DNA of 64,000 nucleotides from positions 38,258 through 102,257 of the forward strand of contig NZ_RJJD01000015.1 in NCBI RefSeq assembly GCF_003721515.1, in the 5' to 3' direction. Shown one piece after another: positions 1 to 7,619 of this stretch; the first letter of the stretch is position 1, and each line of letters starts with the position of its first letter. Below the pieces are notes generated by a model. It ran no database searches. It was not told where the DNA came from and worked only from the letters and a program-made list of their open reading frames with translations. The stretch is from Rufibacter latericius. GTDB lineage: Bacteria > Bacteroidota > Bacteroidia > Cytophagales > Hymenobacteraceae. The translations under genes and the position numbers were made by a program.

Positions 1-557
1 GTTTCGGCTATGCTGTGACCTGCCTTGAGGTACTTGATTACTTTGGGGTGCTGCTTTAACAAGTCCTTTGTGGTGCCCTCTTTCCTGCCCAGTTTCTTGC
101 CTTTCCTTTTGGCCTCTTCTAACCCGCTGTGAATCCGCTCCACCAGCAACCCCCGCTCCATGTCTGCCAGGTCTGCCAATATGGTAAGAATCAGGTTGGC
201 AACCGGGTTCACCTTGCCTTCAGGCGTTAGGGTCTCTATGCCATGGTTCCTTATCACAACACTAACCTTGTGGGCGTGTAGGACCTCCAGAGTTTTCAGG
301 ACCTGCAATGTTTTGCGGCCTAACCTTGAAACCTCATGCACCACCAGCTTATTGATTTTCTTTTCTTCTGCCAGCTTCAAGACTTCCTGAAGTATGGGGC
401 GGTCCTCGTTCTGCTTGGTTCCGCTGATCACCTCTTCAAAGGTTTGCACTGTCTCCCAACCCTGTGAGGTGGCGTACTCCGTCAGCTCACTGATTTGGCG
501 GTCTGTGCTTTGGGTTCTGGTAGAGACTCTGGCAAGTAAGGCTACCTTGTTTTTCAT
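1..557 (-). CDS. Serine recombinase (resolvase/invertase family), 3' end cut by window edge
   Basis: The reverse-strand frame opens at an ATG at 557 and runs off the left edge (185 codons visible). The N-terminus has the ARVST motif of serine recombinases, with the presumed nucleophile Ser12, followed by the resolvase fold (ISGTK, VHEVSRLGR, DLADMERGLLVERI). A GRKEG linker leads into the start of a C-terminal helix-turn-helix. Family members cut and rejoin DNA through a phosphoserine intermediate, for resolution or inversion. It lies inside the integrative element and could resolve or invert part of it. A TACCTTTG box about 28 bp upstream suits a Bacteroidota promoter. The family is clear; the precise role is not. 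Confidence 0.88.
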   Translation of the reverse strand, partial: MKNKVALLARVSTRTQSTDRQISELTEYATSQGWETVQTFEEVISGTKQNEDRPILQEVLKLAEEKKINKLVVHEVSRLGRKTLQVLKTLEVLHAHKVSVVIRNHGIETLTPEGKVNPVANLILTILADLADMERGLLVERIHSGLEEAKRKGKKLGRKEGTTKDLLKQHPKVIKYLKAGHSIAE

Positions 558-584
558 GGGTTAGGGTTGGGTCTTTGTACGTCA

Positions 585-592
585 CAAAGGTA
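585..592 (-). promoter_or_regulatory. Putative -7 box (TACCTTTG) of the serine recombinase
   Basis: On the minus strand this reads TACCTTTG, matching the Bacteroidota TAnnTTTG -7 box, 28 bp before the recombinase ATG. No convincing TTTG -33 box is present; only a weak TTTA lies at roughly the right distance. Confidence 0.4.
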
Positions 593-743
593 GCAGCATT
601 ATTCAATTAATTAAATGTTTTTGTGAATAAACCTAAAGAAAGATTCAATGCCTGTTTGCAGCAACTAGGAGGAGGTTTTCTGAATAACCTTTTTTTGAAT
701 AAGGTACATCTCAGTTGAGCCTCCGATTGCATGACTATTCAGG

Positions 744-992
744 ATGTTGAACACCCCCGGCCATGGCCTGCCAAGTGTATCAGGTCATGCGAGGAAGAGA
801 GAGAGACTTGCTGTAATGGAAGAGTGCCTGAGGGTGCTTGTATCCATTGGCCTGAAAATTCAGGTCAATGAAATTGAGGAGGGAGTATTTGGGAATAAGG
901 CCCCGGCACATGCTGTCAAGGGTACCAGGTTATATCGGGAGAGAGGAAAAATTACAGTGTTTGGAGAGACCCTAAAAATTGCTTTATATTGA
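744..992 (+). CDS. Small hypothetical protein of the integrative element
   Basis: An 82-codon reading frame. The second half (from about codon 25) has codon use that looks coding and gives a charged polypeptide with EIEEGVFGNKAPAHAVKG. The first 24 codons are less protein-like, so translation may begin at the internal ATG at 816. An alternative frame from an ATG at 731 overlaps it and cannot be excluded. I do not recognise the family. It lies between the serine recombinase and the TerB-like gene. Confidence 0.35.
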   Translation: MLNTPGHGLPSVSGHARKRERLAVMEECLRVLVSIGLKIQVNEIEEGVFGNKAPAHAVKGTRLYRERGKITVFGETLKIALY

Positions 993-1191
993 TTGAAAAT
1001 AGTGTATTAGGCAGTACAGTTCCTTTGATTCAACTAACGGCAGCCAAATAACCGGATACTTGTCTCTGGAAGTAGGTCCAATAATGGAGGCTAATTAAAT
1101 GGATTAATATTTAATTGGTAGTTTATTAATAAAAAACGACCTAATTATTAAATAGTAAAAATAAATCTTAACCATTATTAATATAATTAAT

Positions 1192-1629
1192 ATGTTCAAT
1201 CTATTCAACAAAAAACAGGAAGAAAATCCCTTAAAAGAGGTTTTTGGAAACTTAACCGAAAACCAAAGAATGTCTGTCATGAACTTGCTGATGACCATCG
1301 GAGCATGTGACGAAGAAGAACTGTCTGATAAAGAAATGCAGTACCTTAATGTCTATGCTAAAATTCTGGATGTTAAAAGCAATGAGAAATGCATGTCTTA
1401 CTTTGAATTAGAGGAGCATGCGGGGATAATAAAGGACTTGAGACCTGTTACTGAAAAACAAAAAAAGTTCTTAGTTGTTGCGGCTTGGGAAATGATTGTA
1501 TCTGATGGAAGACCAAATGAAACGGAGCTATCAGTTGCAAGTTCTTTGTTTGAAGAGATCGGTGTTAGTAACGAAGAATTTTCTAAGACAATAAAAGCGA
1601 GCCTAAAGGCAACAAATAATCTATTATGA
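1192..1629 (+). CDS. TerB-like helical domain protein
   Basis: A 145-residue cytosolic protein. Residues about 85-140 carry an acidic helical pattern (AAWEMIVSDGRPNETELSVASS) typical of TerB-like domains, where a D-G-x3-x-E motif sits between helices. An earlier GACDEEELSDKEMQYL stretch looks like a first repeat of the same fold. TerB-like domains occur in tellurite-resistance modules and in phage or stress-associated genes; their biochemical role is poorly defined. The gene is AT-rich compared with the chromosome to its right, matching the rest of the element. A strongly AT-rich leader precedes the ATG. Family assignment is by pattern only. Confidence 0.55.
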   Translation: MFNLFNKKQEENPLKEVFGNLTENQRMSVMNLLMTIGACDEEELSDKEMQYLNVYAKILDVKSNEKCMSYFELEEHAGIIKDLRPVTEKQKKFLVVAAWEMIVSDGRPNETELSVASSLFEEIGVSNEEFSKTIKASLKATNNLL

Positions 1630-1704
1630 TGATAGATGTTGATTTGAATTATAACCAAGTATTTATTTTATTATAACTCACCTCTTAGAATGTGTTTTTA
1701 ATTT

Positions 1705-1944
1705 ATGACTTCTTATGCCGAAATAGAATTTAACTACCCACAAAATAATGGAGTAGTTAAGCGGAGCTCTTCGCTCATATTAACTGTTGAAGGTGATATT
1801 AATATCAAAGCTGATAATATTTTTAATAATCTGACTAACCTTGGCGATAGAGTGAAGGCAGCAGAGCTAGATAGGCTTGAACAAAATGGTGAGATTGTTA
1901 TTATTGACAAATCTACAGATAGAGTAAAGTATAAAATTTTGTAA
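1705..1944 (+). CDS. Hypothetical protein, 79 aa
   Basis: A short cytosolic protein with alternating hydrophobic residues (SLILTVEG, GEIVIIDKSTDRVKYKIL) suggesting a small beta-rich fold. There is no signal peptide or membrane segment. It starts 75 bp after the TerB-like gene on the same strand and may be co-transcribed. Codon use is AT-rich like its neighbour. I do not recognise a family. Confidence 0.5.
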   Translation: MTSYAEIEFNYPQNNGVVKRSSSLILTVEGDINIKADNIFNNLTNLGDRVKAAELDRLEQNGEIVIIDKSTDRVKYKIL

Positions 1945-2348
1945 TACTCTAAAAGTGCGATTATGATGTAGTGTGCTCTCTATTGGGTTAGGCCATGCAA
2001 AAGTTCAGAGACAGCCTTGCACATACCTATGGTTTCAAGGTTTTTATAGGTTCTCCCCATTTTTATGGGAGAGTTATTAATCAGGTGTGATGACTATGAC
2101 ATAGCAAAAAAACTTGTTCTTTAACCTTTGAGCGAGTTTTTTGCTATGATTTAGTATGCTTATGAAAGGCGACAGTTAATTCCTCCTAGATAGGTGCTTT
2201 CATTAATAAATGGACTGTGAATGATTAGCTGCCCCTCAAATCTGTATTAAATTCTGATTAGGGAATCTACTTAATATGAATTAAGGTCAAGTTACGTAAT
2301 ATAAGAAGCTACAATAACCGCCACCATCTTTTCTTGTTCTCCCTCTTC
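1945..2348 (+). other. Gene-free stretch in the integrative element
   Basis: No convincing coding frame. It contains a short hairpin near 2052-2073 (TCTCCC / GGGAGA arms) and the longer inverted repeat annotated separately. The convergent genes on either side probably end here. Confidence 0.5.
2100..2148. repeat. Inverted repeat with CATAGCAAAAAA arms
   Basis: Arms at 2100-2115 and 2133-2148 pair over CATAGCAAAAAA / TTTTTTGCTATG with a 17-base spacer. There is no T-tract after the right arm, so it is not a standard terminator. It could be a protein-binding site or a bidirectional transcription stop. Confidence 0.5.
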
Positions 2349-2933
2349 TTAATTGTTCTTTTTTTTCTCCCAAAAATTATCAAGCTGACTTTTGGGATAA
2401 TAAAGCAACTTTCCTCCCCTCTTTAGCGGCTGAAGAAGTTTTTTGTGATTATAATAGTACATGGTACTCTTTTCAACTTTCAAATACTTTGCAGCTTCAT
2501 CAATATCCAACAATTCATCATTTGGGTCAATTCTGTCATTAGGTAAATCCAGTTTCCCCAATACTTTCTGTCGTTCCAGGATATCTTTCACACCCCTCTC
2601 CAAAAGCTTAACTTTTTCAGGAATCATCTCTACTAGTACAGCGAACTGCTCTGATAAATCTTTTAAGTGAATTAAAAACAAATCCCTTGGGGAAGGCTCA
2701 TCTACTCCTTTCTTAGCTTGCTGGACAAGAAAACTTGGAGGTGCCTCATGGTTAAACCTATTCTCTAACATTTGCTCAATCCTACCACTACCATATTCAA
2801 TTTGAATATACTTTAGAAAGGAAATCCTTTCTATAACATCTAATTGAAATAGTAAATCATCCAACTTCCAAGTTAGGCTAATATCTTCACGCACCAACTG
2901 CCACAGCAGTAAATCATATTTTTTAAAATCCAT
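2349..2933 (-). CDS. Helix-turn-helix (excisionase/MerR-like) domain protein
   Basis: The C-terminal 50 residues hold LLDIDEAAKYLKVEKSTMYYYNHKKLL followed by a YYPKSQLDNFWE wing, the pattern of the HTH_17 excisionase-like DNA-binding domain common on Bacteroidota mobile elements. The N-terminal 140 residues are helical and unrecognised. The ATG at 2933 is preferred over one at 2978, which would overlap the integrase stop by 20 bases. The gene lies 25 bp downstream of the integrase on the same strand, so it probably works with it as an excision or directionality factor or regulator. That role is inferred from position and domain. Confidence 0.72.
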   Translation of the reverse strand: MDFKKYDLLLWQLVREDISLTWKLDDLLFQLDVIERISFLKYIQIEYGSGRIEQMLENRFNHEAPPSFLVQQAKKGVDEPSPRDLFLIHLKDLSEQFAVLVEMIPEKVKLLERGVKDILERQKVLGKLDLPNDRIDPNDELLDIDEAAKYLKVEKSTMYYYNHKKLLQPLKRGGKLLYYPKSQLDNFWEKKKNN

Positions 2934-2958
2934 TATGTAAAGATTGTTTCTGCAATGG

Positions 2959-4020
2959 TTAGTTGTCCATGCTCTCAAAGGCTTCTACTAGAGTCCTACC
3001 AAGCAATTGAGCATATATCTCTGTTGTATGGATATTTGAATGCCCCAACCCTTCTTTCACTGCTTTTAAATTACCTGTTTTTAAAAGCATCAAAGTCGCA
3101 CAGGTATGTCTACCTGTATGCCAGGTAACATTAGTAGTGATACCAGCCTGCCTAACCCAATCTCTTATTATGTCATACCTATTACCATCCCCTTGAAAGG
3201 GCCAAGGGAAAACATTTTCAGAAGGCTCTCCTCTTTCTCCCATATAGAATTGTGCATTTTTATTTAATGGGACAACATGAATCTTTTTAGGTGTCTTTAC
3301 CGGCCGGAAAGTTAGTCTACCATCCTTGACGTTGCTCCATTTGATTTCCTTTAAATCAGATATACGCAACCCAGTATAACAGCCAAACAAGAACATTCTT
3401 TTTATAACATCATATTTACAGGGGGCTTTCTTAAGACTCTCCAATTCCTCTTCCGATAAAAATACTCTTTGGGGAACATGCTCTTTAATGGGAGGTACAT
3501 CAAGAGTAGGGTCAATATCAATAATACCTTTTTTGTGAAGAGTAATAATGAATTGCTTAAACTTCAAAAAGCAGGTCTTAGCAAAATTTTGGCTAAGGTT
3601 CTTCAATAAATAATCCCGAAACCCTTCAGCCACTTCAGTTGAAAGTTCCTTCATCATCATAGAGCCTCCGCAAAATTTTGAGAAATGCTTGTAAGAGCAA
3701 TATGTGTTACTCCTAGGTCCTCGGATTTGGAATTGCTTATCTGAAAATTCTTTAAAGCTCTTGAGGAAGTCTTTATTTCCCTTATCAACGTTAGCAAAAC
3801 TCAACCTATGATTCAAGAGTTCCACAACTCTTCCAGCAACTATCTTTTCAACTTCAGCATCAACTAGCTTATTAAAAGCTTTCTCCTCAGCAGTTGTTGG
3901 CTTTGCATACCTGTACAAGTCTTCCAAGAACTCATACTTCCGCTTCTTGTCTTTGTAGATGTCCAGATAAATGCTTTGCTTGTTATCTTTCCTGTCTTTA
4001 TAACGAACTTTTACTCCCAT
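2959..4020 (-). CDS. Tyrosine recombinase / phage-type integrase
   Basis: A 353-residue site-specific recombinase. A SAM-like core-binding domain (about residues 70-180) precedes the catalytic domain. The catalytic set is visible: Arg in TGLRISDLK (about 218), His-x-x-Arg in HTGRHT (about 301-304), His in GLGHSNIHTT, and the nucleophilic Tyr in EIYAQLL (about 335). The start at 4020 is chosen because a strong AAAGGAGGT lies 4-12 bases upstream; a longer frame to 4119 lacks such support. It reads away from the junction inside comM, and the spacing is typical of an integrase next to its own attachment site. It very likely integrates the element. Confidence 0.9.
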   Translation of the reverse strand: MGVKVRYKDRKDNKQSIYLDIYKDKKRKYEFLEDLYRYAKPTTAEEKAFNKLVDAEVEKIVAGRVVELLNHRLSFANVDKGNKDFLKSFKEFSDKQFQIRGPRSNTYCSYKHFSKFCGGSMMMKELSTEVAEGFRDYLLKNLSQNFAKTCFLKFKQFIITLHKKGIIDIDPTLDVPPIKEHVPQRVFLSEEELESLKKAPCKYDVIKRMFLFGCYTGLRISDLKEIKWSNVKDGRLTFRPVKTPKKIHVVPLNKNAQFYMGERGEPSENVFPWPFQGDGNRYDIIRDWVRQAGITTNVTWHTGRHTCATLMLLKTGNLKAVKEGLGHSNIHTTEIYAQLLGRTLVEAFESMDN

Positions 4021-4023
4021 GTT

Positions 4024-4032
4024 ACCTCCTTT
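4024..4032 (-). promoter_or_regulatory. Strong ribosome-binding site deciding the integrase start
   Basis: Minus-strand AAAGGAGGT sits just before the ATG at 4020. Such strong Shine-Dalgarno sites are uncommon in the chromosomal part of this window, consistent with a foreign origin of the element. Confidence 0.75.
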
Positions 4033-4100
4033 GTTATTGTTGTTACTAATTGATTTCTGCAAACGTATCGTAACATTTTCAGTAACGCAAGCCCCCCCAA

Positions 4101-4140
4101 ACAACTCAAAAGACTTCAAACAACTTCAAAGCATTTCAAA
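4101..4140. repeat. Four tandem 10-bp repeats ending in TCAAA upstream of the integrase
   Basis: Consecutive decamers ACAACTCAAA, AGACTTCAAA, CAACTTCAAA and GCATTTCAAA repeat with an exact 10-bp period. Two looser copies (ATTCAAAC, ACTTCAAC) follow near 4196-4214 at the junction. One-turn phasing between the integrase gene and the attachment junction fits arm-type integrase or excisionase binding sites; this is inference. Confidence 0.65.
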
Positions 4141-4189
4141 GTATAATTATTTGACCACCAATTACTTAACCCTATTTTCACCCCCTATT

Positions 4190-4217
4190 TAAAGGATTCA
4201 AACACTACTTCAACCTT
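4190..4217. other. Right junction (att site) of the integrative element in comM
   Basis: From about 4212 rightward the sequence encodes the conserved comM motif (Asn-x-Cys-Pro-Cys-Gly) and continues in frame as ComM. To the left the frame loses similarity and reaches a stop at 4167. The exact crossover cannot be fixed without the left junction, which lies outside the window. Only the codon after Asn (Leu where Pro is usual) departs from the motif. Confidence 0.65.
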
Positions 4218-4703
4218 TGTCCTTGTGGCTTTTACAACGATCCAAGCAAAGATTGTGTCTGCGGACCGGGCGTGGTGCAGCGGTACCTGAACAAGGTGAG
4301 CGGTCCCTTGCTGGACCGCATTGACCTGCACGTAGAGGTAACCCCGGTTTCCTTTGACCAAATGACCGAGACCCGCAAAACCGAAACCAGCTCAGACATA
4401 CGGGAGCGGGTAGAACGCGCCCGGCAATGGCAGGCAGATCGGTTCAAAGACTTCCCAGACATCCACTCCAACGCCATGATGCCGCCGCAGATGGTCAAAG
4501 ACCTGTGCCGTATCAACGAGCCTGGTCGCCTGCTGCTAAAAGCCGCCATGGAAAAACTAGGGTTATCGGCCCGTGCCTATGACCGCATCTTAAAGGTAAG
4601 CCGCACCATCGCTGACTTAGCCGGTTCTGAAGCCATTAAAATAGAACACCTCGCGGAGGCCATCCAGTACCGCAGCCTGGACCGCGAAGGTTGGGCCGGC
4701 TAA
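4212..4703 (+). pseudogene. comM: ComM/YifB Mg-chelatase-like ATPase, 3' part only, interrupted by the element
   Basis: The frame opens with NLCPCGFYND, corresponding to the NPCPCGYY motif of ComM/YifB, then GPGVVQRYLNKVSGPLLDRIDLHVEV and the C-terminal Mg_chelatase_C helical domain ending in AEAIQYRSLDR. Family members are about 510 residues; only about the last 163 remain here. The ATP-binding Walker A part must lie left of the element. ComM is a hexameric helicase aiding branch migration during natural transformation in other bacteria. A GTG at 4272 could start a truncated product, but without the Walker region it should be inactive. Confidence 0.85.
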
Positions 4704-5096: not shown

Positions 5097-5729
5097 ATGA
5101 AAAAGCTAGTATTCTTTGTTGCCGCATTGTTCACCACCTATTTTGCTCAAGCCCAGGAGGGAATCAAATTGGGTTTAAAAGCAGGTGGCAACTTCTCTAA
5201 CTTAACTGGTAAAGACGCGGATGATGATTCTGAATATGTATTTGGTTTCCATGGTGGAGCTTTCTTAGATTATGGAATATCTGACATGGTTTCCATCAGA
5301 CCTGAACTTCTGTATACCTTAAAAGGAGCAAAAGGAGAGATAAAAGAGGATGATATGGATTACACAGAAAAATTAAGAATGCATTATCTCGAACTTCCTC
5401 TTCTGGTTAGAATCAATACAGGCTCACCCGGTTTGTTCTTTGAAGCTGGCCCAACATTCTCTTATTTGTTAACCGCCAAAGCAACTGCTGAAGGAGAAAT
5501 TGACGGAGAAGAGATTGATGAAAGTGAAACAGTGACTGAAACTTTTAAGAAACTTGATATTGGCTATGCAGCTGGTCTTGGTTATCAATTAGGTAGCGGT
5601 TTAGGACTTGGCTTACGCTATGTAGGTGGCTTAAGCAAGATTATTGATGCAGATGATGAGGATGACAGTCCTAAAATCAACAATTCAGTTTTTCAACTTT
5701 CTCTTAGCTACACTCTAGGTGCGAGATAA
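5097..5729 (+). CDS. PorT-family outer-membrane beta-barrel protein (tandem copy 1)
   Basis: A 210-residue protein with a signal peptide ending in FAQAQ. It is followed by the pattern of the OMP_b-brl_2/PorT-like family: GLKAGGNFSNLTG, SIRPELLYTLKGAKG, YLELPLLVRI, LFFEAGPTFSYLL, and a last strand FQLSLSYTLG. It probably forms an eight-stranded barrel in the outer membrane. Its long extracellular loop is very acidic (EIDGEEIDESETVTE; DADDEDD). It is the first of three tandem paralogues, is more AT-rich than the next two, and ends with its own terminator. The family is clear; the specific function is unknown. Confidence 0.85.
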   Translation: MKKLVFFVAALFTTYFAQAQEGIKLGLKAGGNFSNLTGKDADDDSEYVFGFHGGAFLDYGISDMVSIRPELLYTLKGAKGEIKEDDMDYTEKLRMHYLELPLLVRINTGSPGLFFEAGPTFSYLLTAKATAEGEIDGEEIDESETVTETFKKLDIGYAAGLGYQLGSGLGLGLRYVGGLSKIIDADDEDDSPKINNSVFQLSLSYTLGAR

Positions 5730-5751
5730 ATTATAAAGTTTCTAGACTCTG

Positions 5752-5780
5752 AAAAGGGCTCCTCTGGGAGCCCTTTTTTT
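5752..5780 (+). terminator. Rho-independent terminator of barrel copy 1
   Basis: The hairpin GGGCTCC / GGAGCCC with a TCTG loop is flanked by AAAA and a run of eight T. Confidence 0.9.
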
Positions 5781-5837
5781 ATGTGGGTGCAGGTAAACAG
5801 CTCTCTTTAGACAACAAACTGCTGTTTGATTCACTAG

Positions 5838-5873
5838 TGTTTTCCGCCTCTCTTCATGAAAACAGGCAAAAAG
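5838..5873. repeat. Dispersed palindrome, copy 2 (degenerate)
   Basis: An imperfect copy: TTTTCCGCCT on the left, GAAAACAGGCAAAAAG on the right, centred on TTCATGAA. Confidence 0.5.
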
Positions 5874-6127
5874 AATAAATACGCATTTTTGTTTTCGAGC
5901 ACTAAACGGGCTTAAAGTAAAAAGGGCTAATCAGTCTTAATTACCTGAGAAACAACCTCTCTAATACCTATTCTTATCTTTTTCTAAGTTGATTAAATAC
6001 GTACCTGCTCCCTGCCTGTGGGAAACTTCCTACCAAAAACAAGAACATTTTCTTTCCACGGCGTATAAGGGAAGGTTTTACAAGGGTTCATCAGACAAAC
6101 AACCCAGTACTTAATTTAAATACCACT

Positions 6128-6781
6128 ATGAAGAAGATTGTATTATTTGTAGCAGCCGTGCTTTCCTTTGGTGTAGCGCAGGCGCAAACAGGTCCACGTT
6201 TCGGAATCAAGGCGGGAGCAAACTACTCCAACATCTCTGGGAAGGAACTGGCCAACGAAAATATCTATCAAAATAAACTGGGGTTTGTAGGTGGTGTAAC
6301 CGCCAACTTTGACCTGAGCGGTGATGGATTCCTGTCTGTGCAGCCAGAGCTTCTGTTCTCACAGCGCGGCTACCAGTACCGTGACGAGAAGTTCACTAGG
6401 AACAACGTAGAGTATAAACGCAAAGGCGACGTTAACTACAATTACCTGGATTTGCCGGTTCTCCTGAGAATAAACGCCGGAGGGCTTTTCTTTGAAGGTG
6501 GTCCGCAAGCGTCTTATCTGTTAGGCATCAAAGACAACACCGAAGAGCAAATTGGCTCAGGAAAGTTTGAACGCTCTACAAAGGTAGAGAAAGACAATCT
6601 TTCTGAACTTGAAATTGGGTACGCGGCTGGTTTAGGATATCAGGCCCAAAATGGTCTTAGCTTAGGCCTTCGCTACACCGGCGGTATCAATGCCCTAGCC
6701 AAAGAAGACAGCGATGAATTGACCAATGCACGTCATTCTGCTTTCCAACTTACCTTAGGCTACGTATTCGGTGGCCGCTAA
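6128..6781 (+). CDS. PorT-family outer-membrane beta-barrel protein (tandem copy 2)
   Basis: 217 residues with a signal peptide ending in AQAQ. It has the same landmarks as copies 1 and 3 (FGIKAGANYSNISG, VQPELLFSQRGYQY, YLDLPVLLRI, LFFEGGPQASYLLG, EIGYAAGLGYQ, LGLRYTGGIN, FQLTLGYVFG). It is closer to copy 3 than to copy 1, sharing the YKY/YEG-type long turn and the NARHS motif before the last strand. It ends in its own terminator, so the three genes look separately transcribed. The specific function is unknown. Confidence 0.87.
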   Translation: MKKIVLFVAAVLSFGVAQAQTGPRFGIKAGANYSNISGKELANENIYQNKLGFVGGVTANFDLSGDGFLSVQPELLFSQRGYQYRDEKFTRNNVEYKRKGDVNYNYLDLPVLLRINAGGLFFEGGPQASYLLGIKDNTEEQIGSGKFERSTKVEKDNLSELEIGYAAGLGYQAQNGLSLGLRYTGGINALAKEDSDELTNARHSAFQLTLGYVFGGR

Positions 6782-6803
6782 TAAGATCAGATTTTAATTT
6801 TTG

Positions 6804-6838
6804 AAAAGAGGAGCCGCAAATGCAGCTCCTCTTTTTTT
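6804..6838 (+). terminator. Rho-independent terminator of barrel copy 2
   Basis: AAAAGAGGAGC pairs with GCTCCTCTTTT across a CGCAAATGCA loop, followed by a T-tract. Confidence 0.9.
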
Positions 6839-6968
6839 GTCTTCATTTTCAGCCCTTTATTCAGAAACCATTTCCAAAACAGCTTTGGTATCTGCCCCTT
6901 TCATGATTTAGGCACAGTGTTTGATTAAATACTCACAAACAAGGGAACTAAATCAAACTTTTAAAATC

Positions 6969-7619
6969 ATGAAAAAATTCGTCTTCTTATTTGTGGCCAT
7001 AGTAGCTTCTTATGCTGCTCAAGCCCAGTCTTCCTTCGGGATAAAAGGTGGTCTTAACTACTCAAACCTTTCCGGCGATTTACAGAACCAGGAAAGATTC
7101 AACAACAAAGTGGGTTTCAACGCCGGGGTTTACTTCAACGCGCCCATCATCGGGGACTTCTTCTCTATTCAGCCGGAAGTGCTGTATTCCAACAAAGGCT
7201 ACAAGTACGATGATAAAGTAGAAACCACTTTGCTAGGCGTTGAAAATAGATACGAAGGAACCGCCAATTTCAATTACATTGACGTTCCGGTTTTGGCCCG
7301 CATAAAAGCCAGCAGTTTGTTCTTTGAGGCTGGTCCGCAGGTTTCTTACCTTGTGAGCGTGAACGACAAAACCAAACACTTCAGAGATGGCGAATTAGTG
7401 AACCGCGAGATAAGTCAGAAAAGCAAAGCTGGTTACTCAGACTTTGAAGTAGGCTACGCCGCCGGAGTTGGTTTTGCCACCGCTAACGGCATCAGTTTGG
7501 GTCTGCGTTACAACGGCGCCTTCACCGACTTAACCGATGATTCTCCGGCCAGAGGCGAGATCAAGAATGCCCGCCATTCTTCCTTCCAGTTGTCACTGGG
7601 CTTCCCGCTGAGCAGATAA
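6969..7619 (+). CDS. PorT-family outer-membrane beta-barrel protein (tandem copy 3)
   Basis: 216 residues from the ATG at 6969. The longer frame from 6921 adds 16 residues ahead of a perfect signal peptide (MKKFVFLFVAIVASYAAQAQ) and is rejected. The strand pattern matches copies 1 and 2: FGIKGGLNYSNLSG, IQPEVLYSNKGYKY, YIDVPVLARI, LFFEAGPQVSYLV, EVGYAAGVGF, LGLRYNGAF, and the final SFQLSLGFPL. Differences cluster in the loops, as expected of surface-exposed duplicates. Confidence 0.87.
   Translation: MKKFVFLFVAIVASYAAQAQSSFGIKGGLNYSNLSGDLQNQERFNNKVGFNAGVYFNAPIIGDFFSIQPEVLYSNKGYKYDDKVETTLLGVENRYEGTANFNYIDVPVLARIKASSLFFEAGPQVSYLVSVNDKTKHFRDGELVNREISQKSKAGYSDFEVGYAAGVGFATANGISLGLRYNGAFTDLTDDSPARGEIKNARHSSFQLSLGFPLSR

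What the first reader, a model, noticed from the sequence alone, without database searches (positions are those of the whole stretch)
1..4217. Integrative element inserted in the comM/yifB gene at its NPCPCG motif
Coding sequence of the ComM ATPase starts abruptly at 4212 with the Asn-Leu-Cys-Pro-Cys-Gly block. Just left of it are a tyrosine integrase, a helix-turn-helix gene and other mobile-element genes. The left part is AT-rich and lacks the dispersed palindromes that appear from 4738 onward. This shows a recombination target within a conserved coding motif, which likely splits comM. Loss of ComM reduces natural transformation in other bacteria, so the element may limit DNA uptake by its host or competitors.
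Basis: partly seen in the sequence, partly recalled or inferred. Interest (0 to 1): 0.6.

Follow-up and report, generated by a model that had tools for sequence, protein, structure and literature searches.

The report
Mobile elements repeatedly split bacterial comM
A 21-kilobase mobile element has inserted inside the only comM gene of this Rufibacter-like bacterium, and surveyed relatives show that several unrelated kinds of mobile element cut the same gene at its conserved motifs, while four other conserved genes checked showed no such insertions.

Summary
Confirmed and extended. The window's genome has one comM (yifB), split at the NPCPCG codons: the 5' part (355 aa, ending ...MNPCPCG*) lies 20.9 kb left of the 3' part at window 4212-4703, on the same contig. 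Between them is a 38% GC element (host 51-54%) with one tyrosine integrase and an HTH gene at its right end. Its cargo includes a GAP1-N1/double-GTPase conflict system. A second Rufibacter species has the same insertion, but its integrase is 98% identical while the comM halves are only 84-85%, so the element moved separately.

The surprise is the pattern. In a 200-genome sample of the family, 16 genomes (own included) have comM cut by inserts. The cuts fall at four motifs: Walker A, upstream of Walker B, NPCPCG, ECVCG. In the first 100 genomes inserts were seen in comM in 8, in dprA, comEC, xseA and recA in none. Elsewhere in the phylum, large serine recombinases hit the same NPCPCG and Walker A motifs.

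comM-targeting by diverse elements is known in Gammaproteobacteria (AbaR/Tn6022, Tsy; Walker B). The recombinases, the NPCPCG site and the phylum appear new in the papers I could search. Loss of ComM activity and any benefit to the element are inferred.

The parts
1..4222 (.). right-hand 4.2 kb of a 20.9 kb integrated element (left end at contig C6 about 21595, some 16.7 kb left of the window)
4194..4229 (+). right junction (attR): element end GGATTCAAACACTACTTCAACCTTTGTCC running into comM codons NLCPCG; crossover probably in or next to TGTCC, 4218-4222
4212..4703 (+). 3' part of comM (163 aa), cut off from its 5' part
2959..4020 (-). tyrosine integrase, 353 aa (Arm-DNA-bind_5, Phage_int_SAM_5, Phage_integrase); a TTG start would extend it to 4119
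2349..2933 (-). HTH_17 protein, 194 aa from ATG (209 aa from TTG), next to the integrase; possible excisionase or regulator (weak PHROG match to an excisionase family; NCBIfam match to a defence HTH far below its cut-off)
1192..1629 (+). TerB-like protein, cargo
1705..1944 (+). 79 aa ORF, no Pfam family, cargo
3..557 (-). small resolvase (serine recombinase), runs off the window

Best explanation
The element is a site-specific integrative element. Its tyrosine integrase recombines the element's circular form with a target inside comM, at the codons for Asn-Pro-Cys-Pro-Cys-Gly, probably exchanging strands in or next to TGYCC (site shown, chemistry inferred). This splits the host's only comM (shown). 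The integrase belongs to a clade specialised on this site: six members with 28-99% pairwise identity all sit at NPCPCG (shown). In Bacteroidota comM is a repeated target: two tyrosine-integrase lineages, large serine recombinases and Tn7-like transposons cut it at a few conserved motifs (shown). The likely reasons are two: the motif codons are conserved across hosts, so the recognition site is found in many species; and a cell without ComM integrates foreign DNA less well by transformation, so it less often replaces the element with an empty site (both inferred). The cargo includes a GAP1-N1 GTPase conflict system that may act against other invaders (inferred).
For: Split comM, both parts on one contig, no second copy found. 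Empty site in the same genus (G012). G000 and G063: integrase DNA 98.3% identical, HTH gene 96.8%, comM halves 84.9% and 83.8%, so separate arrivals or a later swap. The six NPCPCG elements of the family each have one tyrosine integrase, at the right end, forming one clade, support 100/95. 16 of 200 family genomes, own included, are cut by inserts. Same first 100 genomes: inserts seen in comM 8, DprA 0, Exonuc_VII_L 0, ComEC 0, RecA 0; Fisher one-sided 8/100 against 0/400, p=2e-6; without the own genome, which is what led here, 7/99 against 0/396, p=1e-5; relatedness ignored. NPCPCG is also hit by large serine recombinases in five genomes of four other families. Walker A is hit by tyrosine integrases in the family and by large serine recombinases elsewhere. 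The eight split genomes among the first 100 have dprA and comEC frames of normal length without stops.
Against: No excision, circle or transformation was measured. The predicted circle junction (attP) gave no match in viral contigs. No insert was seen in dprA or comEC, so the pattern is special to comM rather than to competence as such. The protein is a YifB-family member that scores below the NCBIfam cut-off of NF007365 (463 against 530 bits), so its ComM function in this phylum rests on homology (PDB ComM entry 8rxd, E 3e-129) and on joint breakage with dprA and comEC in two genomes. The direct repeat is imperfect. The genomes compared are related, and the tests do not correct for it.
Confidence: 0.8

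Rival explanations
1. Neutral safe harbour: comM is dispensable and its motif codons are highly conserved, so integrases find it in every host at little cost. Loss of transformation is a by-product with no benefit to the element.
For: Inserts sit on conserved motifs. Close integrase relatives use another conserved coding motif, the FCIGK end of mnmE, apparently without breaking it. No insert seen in dprA or comEC.
Against: One other conserved gene that I take to be dispensable was not hit (xseA, 0 of 100). Several unrelated recombinase classes converge on the one gene. A disrupting site should cost the host more than a gene-end site such as mnmE (inference).
Confidence: 0.4
2. Competence was already lost, so comM is free to be interrupted.
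For: G046 and G088 have stops or frameshifts in comM, dprA and comEC together.
Against: The eight insert-split genomes among the first 100, own genome included, have dprA and comEC frames of normal length without stops.
Confidence: 0.08
3. The element is a Tsy or Tn6022-type transposon using TnsF.
For: Same gene; integrase and HTH gene present as in Tsy (PMC10293859).
Against: Only one tyrosine recombinase found in the element, no Tn7 genes among the proteins scanned, and the site is 48 codons downstream of Walker B.
Confidence: 0.02
4. Assembly artefact, or an old duplicate of comM.
For: None found.
Against: The Rufibacter sediminis assembly has the same structure; no second copy.
Confidence: 0.01

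Closest known systems
AbaR / Tn6022 (Tn7-like) islands and other MGEs in comM of Acinetobacter baumannii
   Same: Large elements with cargo split comM; 22% of the strains studied have comM inactivated, by AbaR and by many other diverse MGEs, often with defence systems, and transformation is lower (passages of PMC11472951 and PMC10293859). So targeting of comM by several kinds of element is already reported for that species.
   Different: Tn6022 uses a Tn7-type transposase with TnsF, target at Walker B. Here one tyrosine integrase, target at NPCPCG, in Bacteroidota. A Tn7-like insert also occurs in this family, upstream of Walker B (G101).
Tsy (ZooTsy)
   Same: Tyrosine recombinase plus HTH gene, comM target (section 13 of PMC10293859)
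   Different: Tsy needs two tyrosine recombinases, one being the zinc-finger TnsF, and targets Walker B; only one was found here.
MGEs in comM of Aggregatibacter, Mannheimia, Francisella, Pseudomonas (Croucher 2016, PMC4774983)
   Same: Repeated comM interruption, argued to protect the element from removal by transformation (passages)
   Different: In the passages seen, one integrase family at one orthologous place; here several recombinase classes and four motifs, in another phylum.
Bacteroidota tyrosine integrases at the mnmE 3' end
   Same: Integrase relatives in the order sample; 16 of 29 loci have the FCIGK end in the upstream stretch (named MnmE for the one locus scanned, L117)
   Different: Target is a gene end and appears preserved; the comM clade cuts inside a gene.
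GAP1-N1 GTPase-centric conflict systems (PMC7159879)
   Same: Cargo has GAP1-N1 with EAD1, GASH, DO-GTPase1, DO-GTPase2 and an EAD1-trypsin effector (passages)
   Different: A separate neighbouring NS-type endonuclease gene; here carried inside a comM element.

Membership tests
comM-interrupting mobile elements (general kind) | element flanked by the 5' and 3' parts of one comM | tested here: met
comM-interrupting mobile elements (general kind) | lowered natural transformation | not testable with these tools
   needs an assay in a strain of this family
Tsy transposon | second tyrosine recombinase (TnsF-like, zinc fingers) | tested here: not met
   profile search of stop-to-stop frames of 60 aa or more in the element finds one tyrosine recombinase at E 1e-4; the profile was made of integrases of this report, so a very distant one could be missed
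Tsy transposon | insertion at Walker B of comM | tested here: not met
   insertion at codons 350-355, NPCPCG; Walker B at 302-307
Tn6022 / Tn7-like | TnsA/B/C and TniQ or TnsF genes | tested here: not met
   none among the 20 proteins (18 of the element, 2 comM parts); present in G101 at another site
tyrosine-integrase genomic island | integrase at one end beside the attachment site | tested here: met
   integrase starts about 190 bp from the comM junction
tyrosine-integrase genomic island | direct repeat at both ends | tested here: inconclusive
   13 of 18 bases in the NPCPCG block match, exact run only TGTCC
tyrosine-integrase genomic island | excision as a circle | not testable with these tools
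   predicted circle junction not found in viral contigs, which does not settle it
GAP1-N1 conflict system | GAP1-N1, GASH and two DO-GTPase genes | tested here: met
   definition read in passages of PMC7159879
prophage | capsid, portal and terminase genes | tested here: not met
   none in Pfam (20 proteins) or PHROGs (10 proteins); only a baseplate-hub-like gene and an Rha-like gene

The most novel reading that the evidence does not exclude
comM of Bacteroidota is a convergent battlefield gene: tyrosine integrases, large serine recombinases and Tn7-like transposons have each independently evolved to cut it at the same few conserved motifs, because switching off ComM stops the cell from curing itself of mobile elements by transformation. 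The window's integrase clade would then have left a benign gene-end site (mnmE-like) for a disabling one; the tree is unrooted, so that direction is not shown.
Probability: 0.4. Interest if true: 0.8.

Novelty: new variant of a known kind. Interest (0 to 1): 0.6.

Why it matters
Whether mobile elements switch off transformation to protect themselves is an open question, argued in the papers seen here mostly from Streptococcus, Acinetobacter and Pasteurellaceae. A family in which 8% of the sampled species have comM cut, by unrelated enzymes, with dprA and comEC whole in the eight split genomes checked, gives natural comM-split and comM-intact pairs to test it. It also gives short conserved target sites and matching integrases of two chemistries for the same codons.

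Tried and rejected
An intact second comM: not found. Tsy/TnsF-type element: rejected. Assembly artefact: rejected (R. sediminis assembly). Frameshift or stop cases G046, G060, G088, G186 and G312 and the contig-edge case G197 were left out of the insert counts. G195 and G039 have no usable comM. Controls: G039 (78% complete) has no dprA or recA hit and only part of xseA; G195 has no recA hit; xseA gives two overlapping hits in one open frame in G002 and G045; comEC frames of G053 and G039 are short (581 and 558 aa); none of these was followed up. In RecA (200 genomes) G189, G191 and G199 have weaker, doubled hits that were not followed up, so recA is 0 of the first 100 but could be up to 3 of 200 (16/200 against 3/200, p=0.002; 15/199 against 3/199, p=0.003). 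A first Fisher test used 17 genomes; the recount is 16.

In the phylum sample the follow-up set of 18 was picked by eye. The weak rows G258, G272, G287, G464 and G587 (they look like missing comM), G249 (2.9e-89, where its family mostly gives about 1e-100) and most of the low-scoring family f30 were not followed, so the phylum count is a lower bound. G547 ends at a contig edge; G582, G535 and G450 are one-sided; all four are left out of the counts. Predicted attP not found in viral contigs; viral relatives of the integrase are 23-37% identical in their best segments and their sites were not examined. One row of the first tree (L131) was a wrong ORF; the tree was rebuilt without it. For L128, L129 and L133 the script found no integrase frame, so they are in neither the mnmE count nor the tree; L127 was too short for the tree.
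Full report
Setting. The window lies at C6:38258-102257 of a 5.67 Mb genome in 23 contigs. A same-genus genome, G063, has a contig of the same length (404,045 bp) as a Rufibacter sediminis contig, so I take the genus to be Rufibacter, family Hymenobacteraceae, order Cytophagales, phylum Bacteroidota; this naming is an inference.

The split gene. A Pfam search of the whole genome finds Mg_chelatase (PF01078) in two pieces on C6: positions 1-172 at C6:21115-21630 and positions 156-205 at C6:42466-42615; the only other hit is 21.1 bits over positions 98-159. The 5' open frame codes for 355 aa ending ...FMLVASMNPCPCG and then a stop. The 3' part starts at window 4212 with NLCPCGFYNDP. Against the intact 512 aa ComM of G012 (same genus), the pieces cover residues 1-355 and 350-512 at 90% and 94% identity. 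The 20.9 kb between them has 38% GC against 51-54% in the flanks.

The element. At its right end are a 353 aa tyrosine integrase and, inward of it, a 194 aa HTH_17 protein. Further in lie a TerB-like gene, a small resolvase, a baseplate-hub-like gene, an Rha-like regulator, an unnamed 552 aa protein and, at the left, genes matching the GAP1-N1 GTPase-centric conflict system: GAP1-N1 with EAD1, DO-GTPase1, DO-GTPase2, GASH and trypsin with EAD1, and beside them a DNA/RNA non-specific endonuclease. The gene set was compared with passages of PMC7159879. No capsid, portal or terminase family was seen among the proteins scanned.

Junctions. The empty site in G012 reads AACCCGTGTCCGTGCGGCTTC. The left junction in G000 is AACCCGTGTCCGTGCGGT then TGA; the right junction is TTCAACCTTTGTCCTTGTGGC. 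G063 has the same first bases at both element ends. Joining the ends on paper gives a circle junction with the inverted repeat TTCAACC/GGTTGAA, which would suit a tyrosine recombinase; this is inference, and the pattern was not found in viral contigs.

Separate arrivals. G000 and G063 differ by about 15-16% in the comM halves (84.9% and 83.8% identical), but only 1.7% in the integrase and 3.2% in the HTH gene; other shared stretches are 79-87% identical and part of the cargo is not shared.

Survey of the family. 200 genomes were scanned for PF01078. The 21 genomes, besides the own one, whose best hit was weak were searched again with two intact ones (23 in all), and DNA was fetched for 19 of the 21 (not G195 and G197) and for one intact genome. 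Inserts cut comM in 16 of 200 genomes, 17 inserts in all: at NPCPCG in G000, G063, G030, G052, G164 and G086; at Walker A in G066, G072, G169 and G086 (a second insert in the same gene); upstream of Walker B (GGGGNPQPG) in G101, G180, G172 and G190; at ECVCG in G075 and G115; and an odd case, G146, where residues 243-288 were not found. In G190 residues 212-284 were not found. In G169, G115, G172 and G146 the two parts lie on different contigs. The NPCPCG elements each have one tyrosine integrase at the right end, and three of the Walker A ones (G066, G072, G169) have a different one at the left end (56-95% identical to each other, about 23-26% to the first group); in the Walker A element of G086 the integrase is interrupted. 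G101 carries TnsA, a Mu/rve-type transposase, TniB and TniQ; similar ORF layouts in G180, G172, G190 and G146 were not scanned. In G075 and G115 the recombinase was not firmly identified; a 685 aa protein of G115 has only helix-turn-helix domains of transposase type, and its TniB-like neighbour is my reading of the sequence.

Controls. In the first 100 of these genomes (G000-G099, own genome included; the list starts with the own genus) comM is cut by inserts in 8 (G000, G030, G052, G063, G066, G072, G075, G086). For DprA, Exonuc_VII_L, ComEC and RecA (first 100 handles) I saw none; a few incomplete hits, mostly in the 78% complete G039, were not followed. G046 and G088 have stops or frameshifts in dprA, comEC and comM alike, with normal recA and xseA hits, which ties comM to competence in this family; the eight split genomes have dprA and comEC frames of normal length without stops. 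Fisher one-sided: 8/100 against 0/100, p=0.003; against 0/400 pooled, p=2e-6; without the own genome 7/99 against 0/99, p=0.007, and against 0/396, p=1e-5. The tests ignore relatedness.

Phylum. Of 392 genomes (G000 among them) 18 weak ones were followed, eight of them were searched again with whole ComM (with G190 and G146), and junctions were read for 12. Beyond G000 I count at least 12 with inserts: NPCPCG in G323, G368, G558, G245 (parts on two contigs) and G317 (one-sided); Walker A in G505, G423 and G274; the region before Walker B in G296, G420, G537 and G461. G296 rests on the Pfam pieces alone, on two contigs. The five NPCPCG cases carry large serine recombinases 55-82% identical to each other (Pfam domains checked in G368 and G323); in the four two-sided ones the junctions share TG of the first Cys codon, the same spot as the tyrosine elements. 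G423 and G274 also carry large serine recombinases, G505 none that I saw; G537 and G420 carry others (Pfam for G420), and G461 has a Tn7-like layout by ORF sizes.

Integrase history. A profile of the six NPCPCG integrases finds relatives at E 1e-40 in 44 of 291 genomes of the order, own included. Of 30 fetched loci, with about 1.5 kb on each side, only the window's own lies at comM. Of the other 29, 16 have FCIGK in the upstream stretch (three of the 29 could not be read by the script), and the one scanned is MnmE. In the tree the six comM integrases form one group, support 100/95; the Walker A ones form another (33 rows).

Literature. Passages seen: PMC4774983 (comM inserts in Gammaproteobacteria), PMC11472951 (comM inactivated in 22% of A. 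baumannii strains, by diverse elements; loss of ComM lowers transformation), PMC10293859 (Tn6022 and Tsy, TnsF, Walker B; section 13 read whole), PMC7159879. The listings of searches showed no paper on comM inserts in Bacteroidota or on NPCPCG as a target; only open-licence PMC papers are held, only the listed rows were seen, and no paper that merely lists integrase sites was read.

Judgement. Insertion into comM at NPCPCG: about 0.97. comM as a hot spot in the family: about 0.9. Selection for loss of ComM as a cause: about 0.4-0.5, the safe-harbour reading being close behind.

Noticed in passing
L004:2836-11392 (left of the window): Cargo operon of a GAP1-N1 GTPase-centric conflict system with EAD1-trypsin, and a neighbouring non-specific endonuclease gene; the PADLOC scan matched only its protease domain.
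   Followed up: partly
L004:11609-13267: 552 aa protein; a 560 aa ORF lies in the matching part of the Rufibacter sediminis element. By eye it has a polymerase-like HDS motif, but no family, PDB or fold support.
   Followed up: partly
window 5097-7619: Three tandem paralogous outer-membrane beta-barrel genes just downstream of the comM 3' part (by eye, from the translations); R. sediminis has four at the same place.
   Followed up: no
G046 and G088 (family sample): comM, dprA and comEC all broken by stops or frameshifts: apparent loss of the competence pathway.
   Followed up: partly
G086, L049-L050: One comM cut by two different elements, at Walker A and at NPCPCG; the Walker A integrase is interrupted.
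   Followed up: partly
L041:15055-16296 (R. sediminis element): 413 aa protein with a PADLOC match to LmuB (E 7.5e-19), a possible defence gene in the sister element.
   Followed up: no
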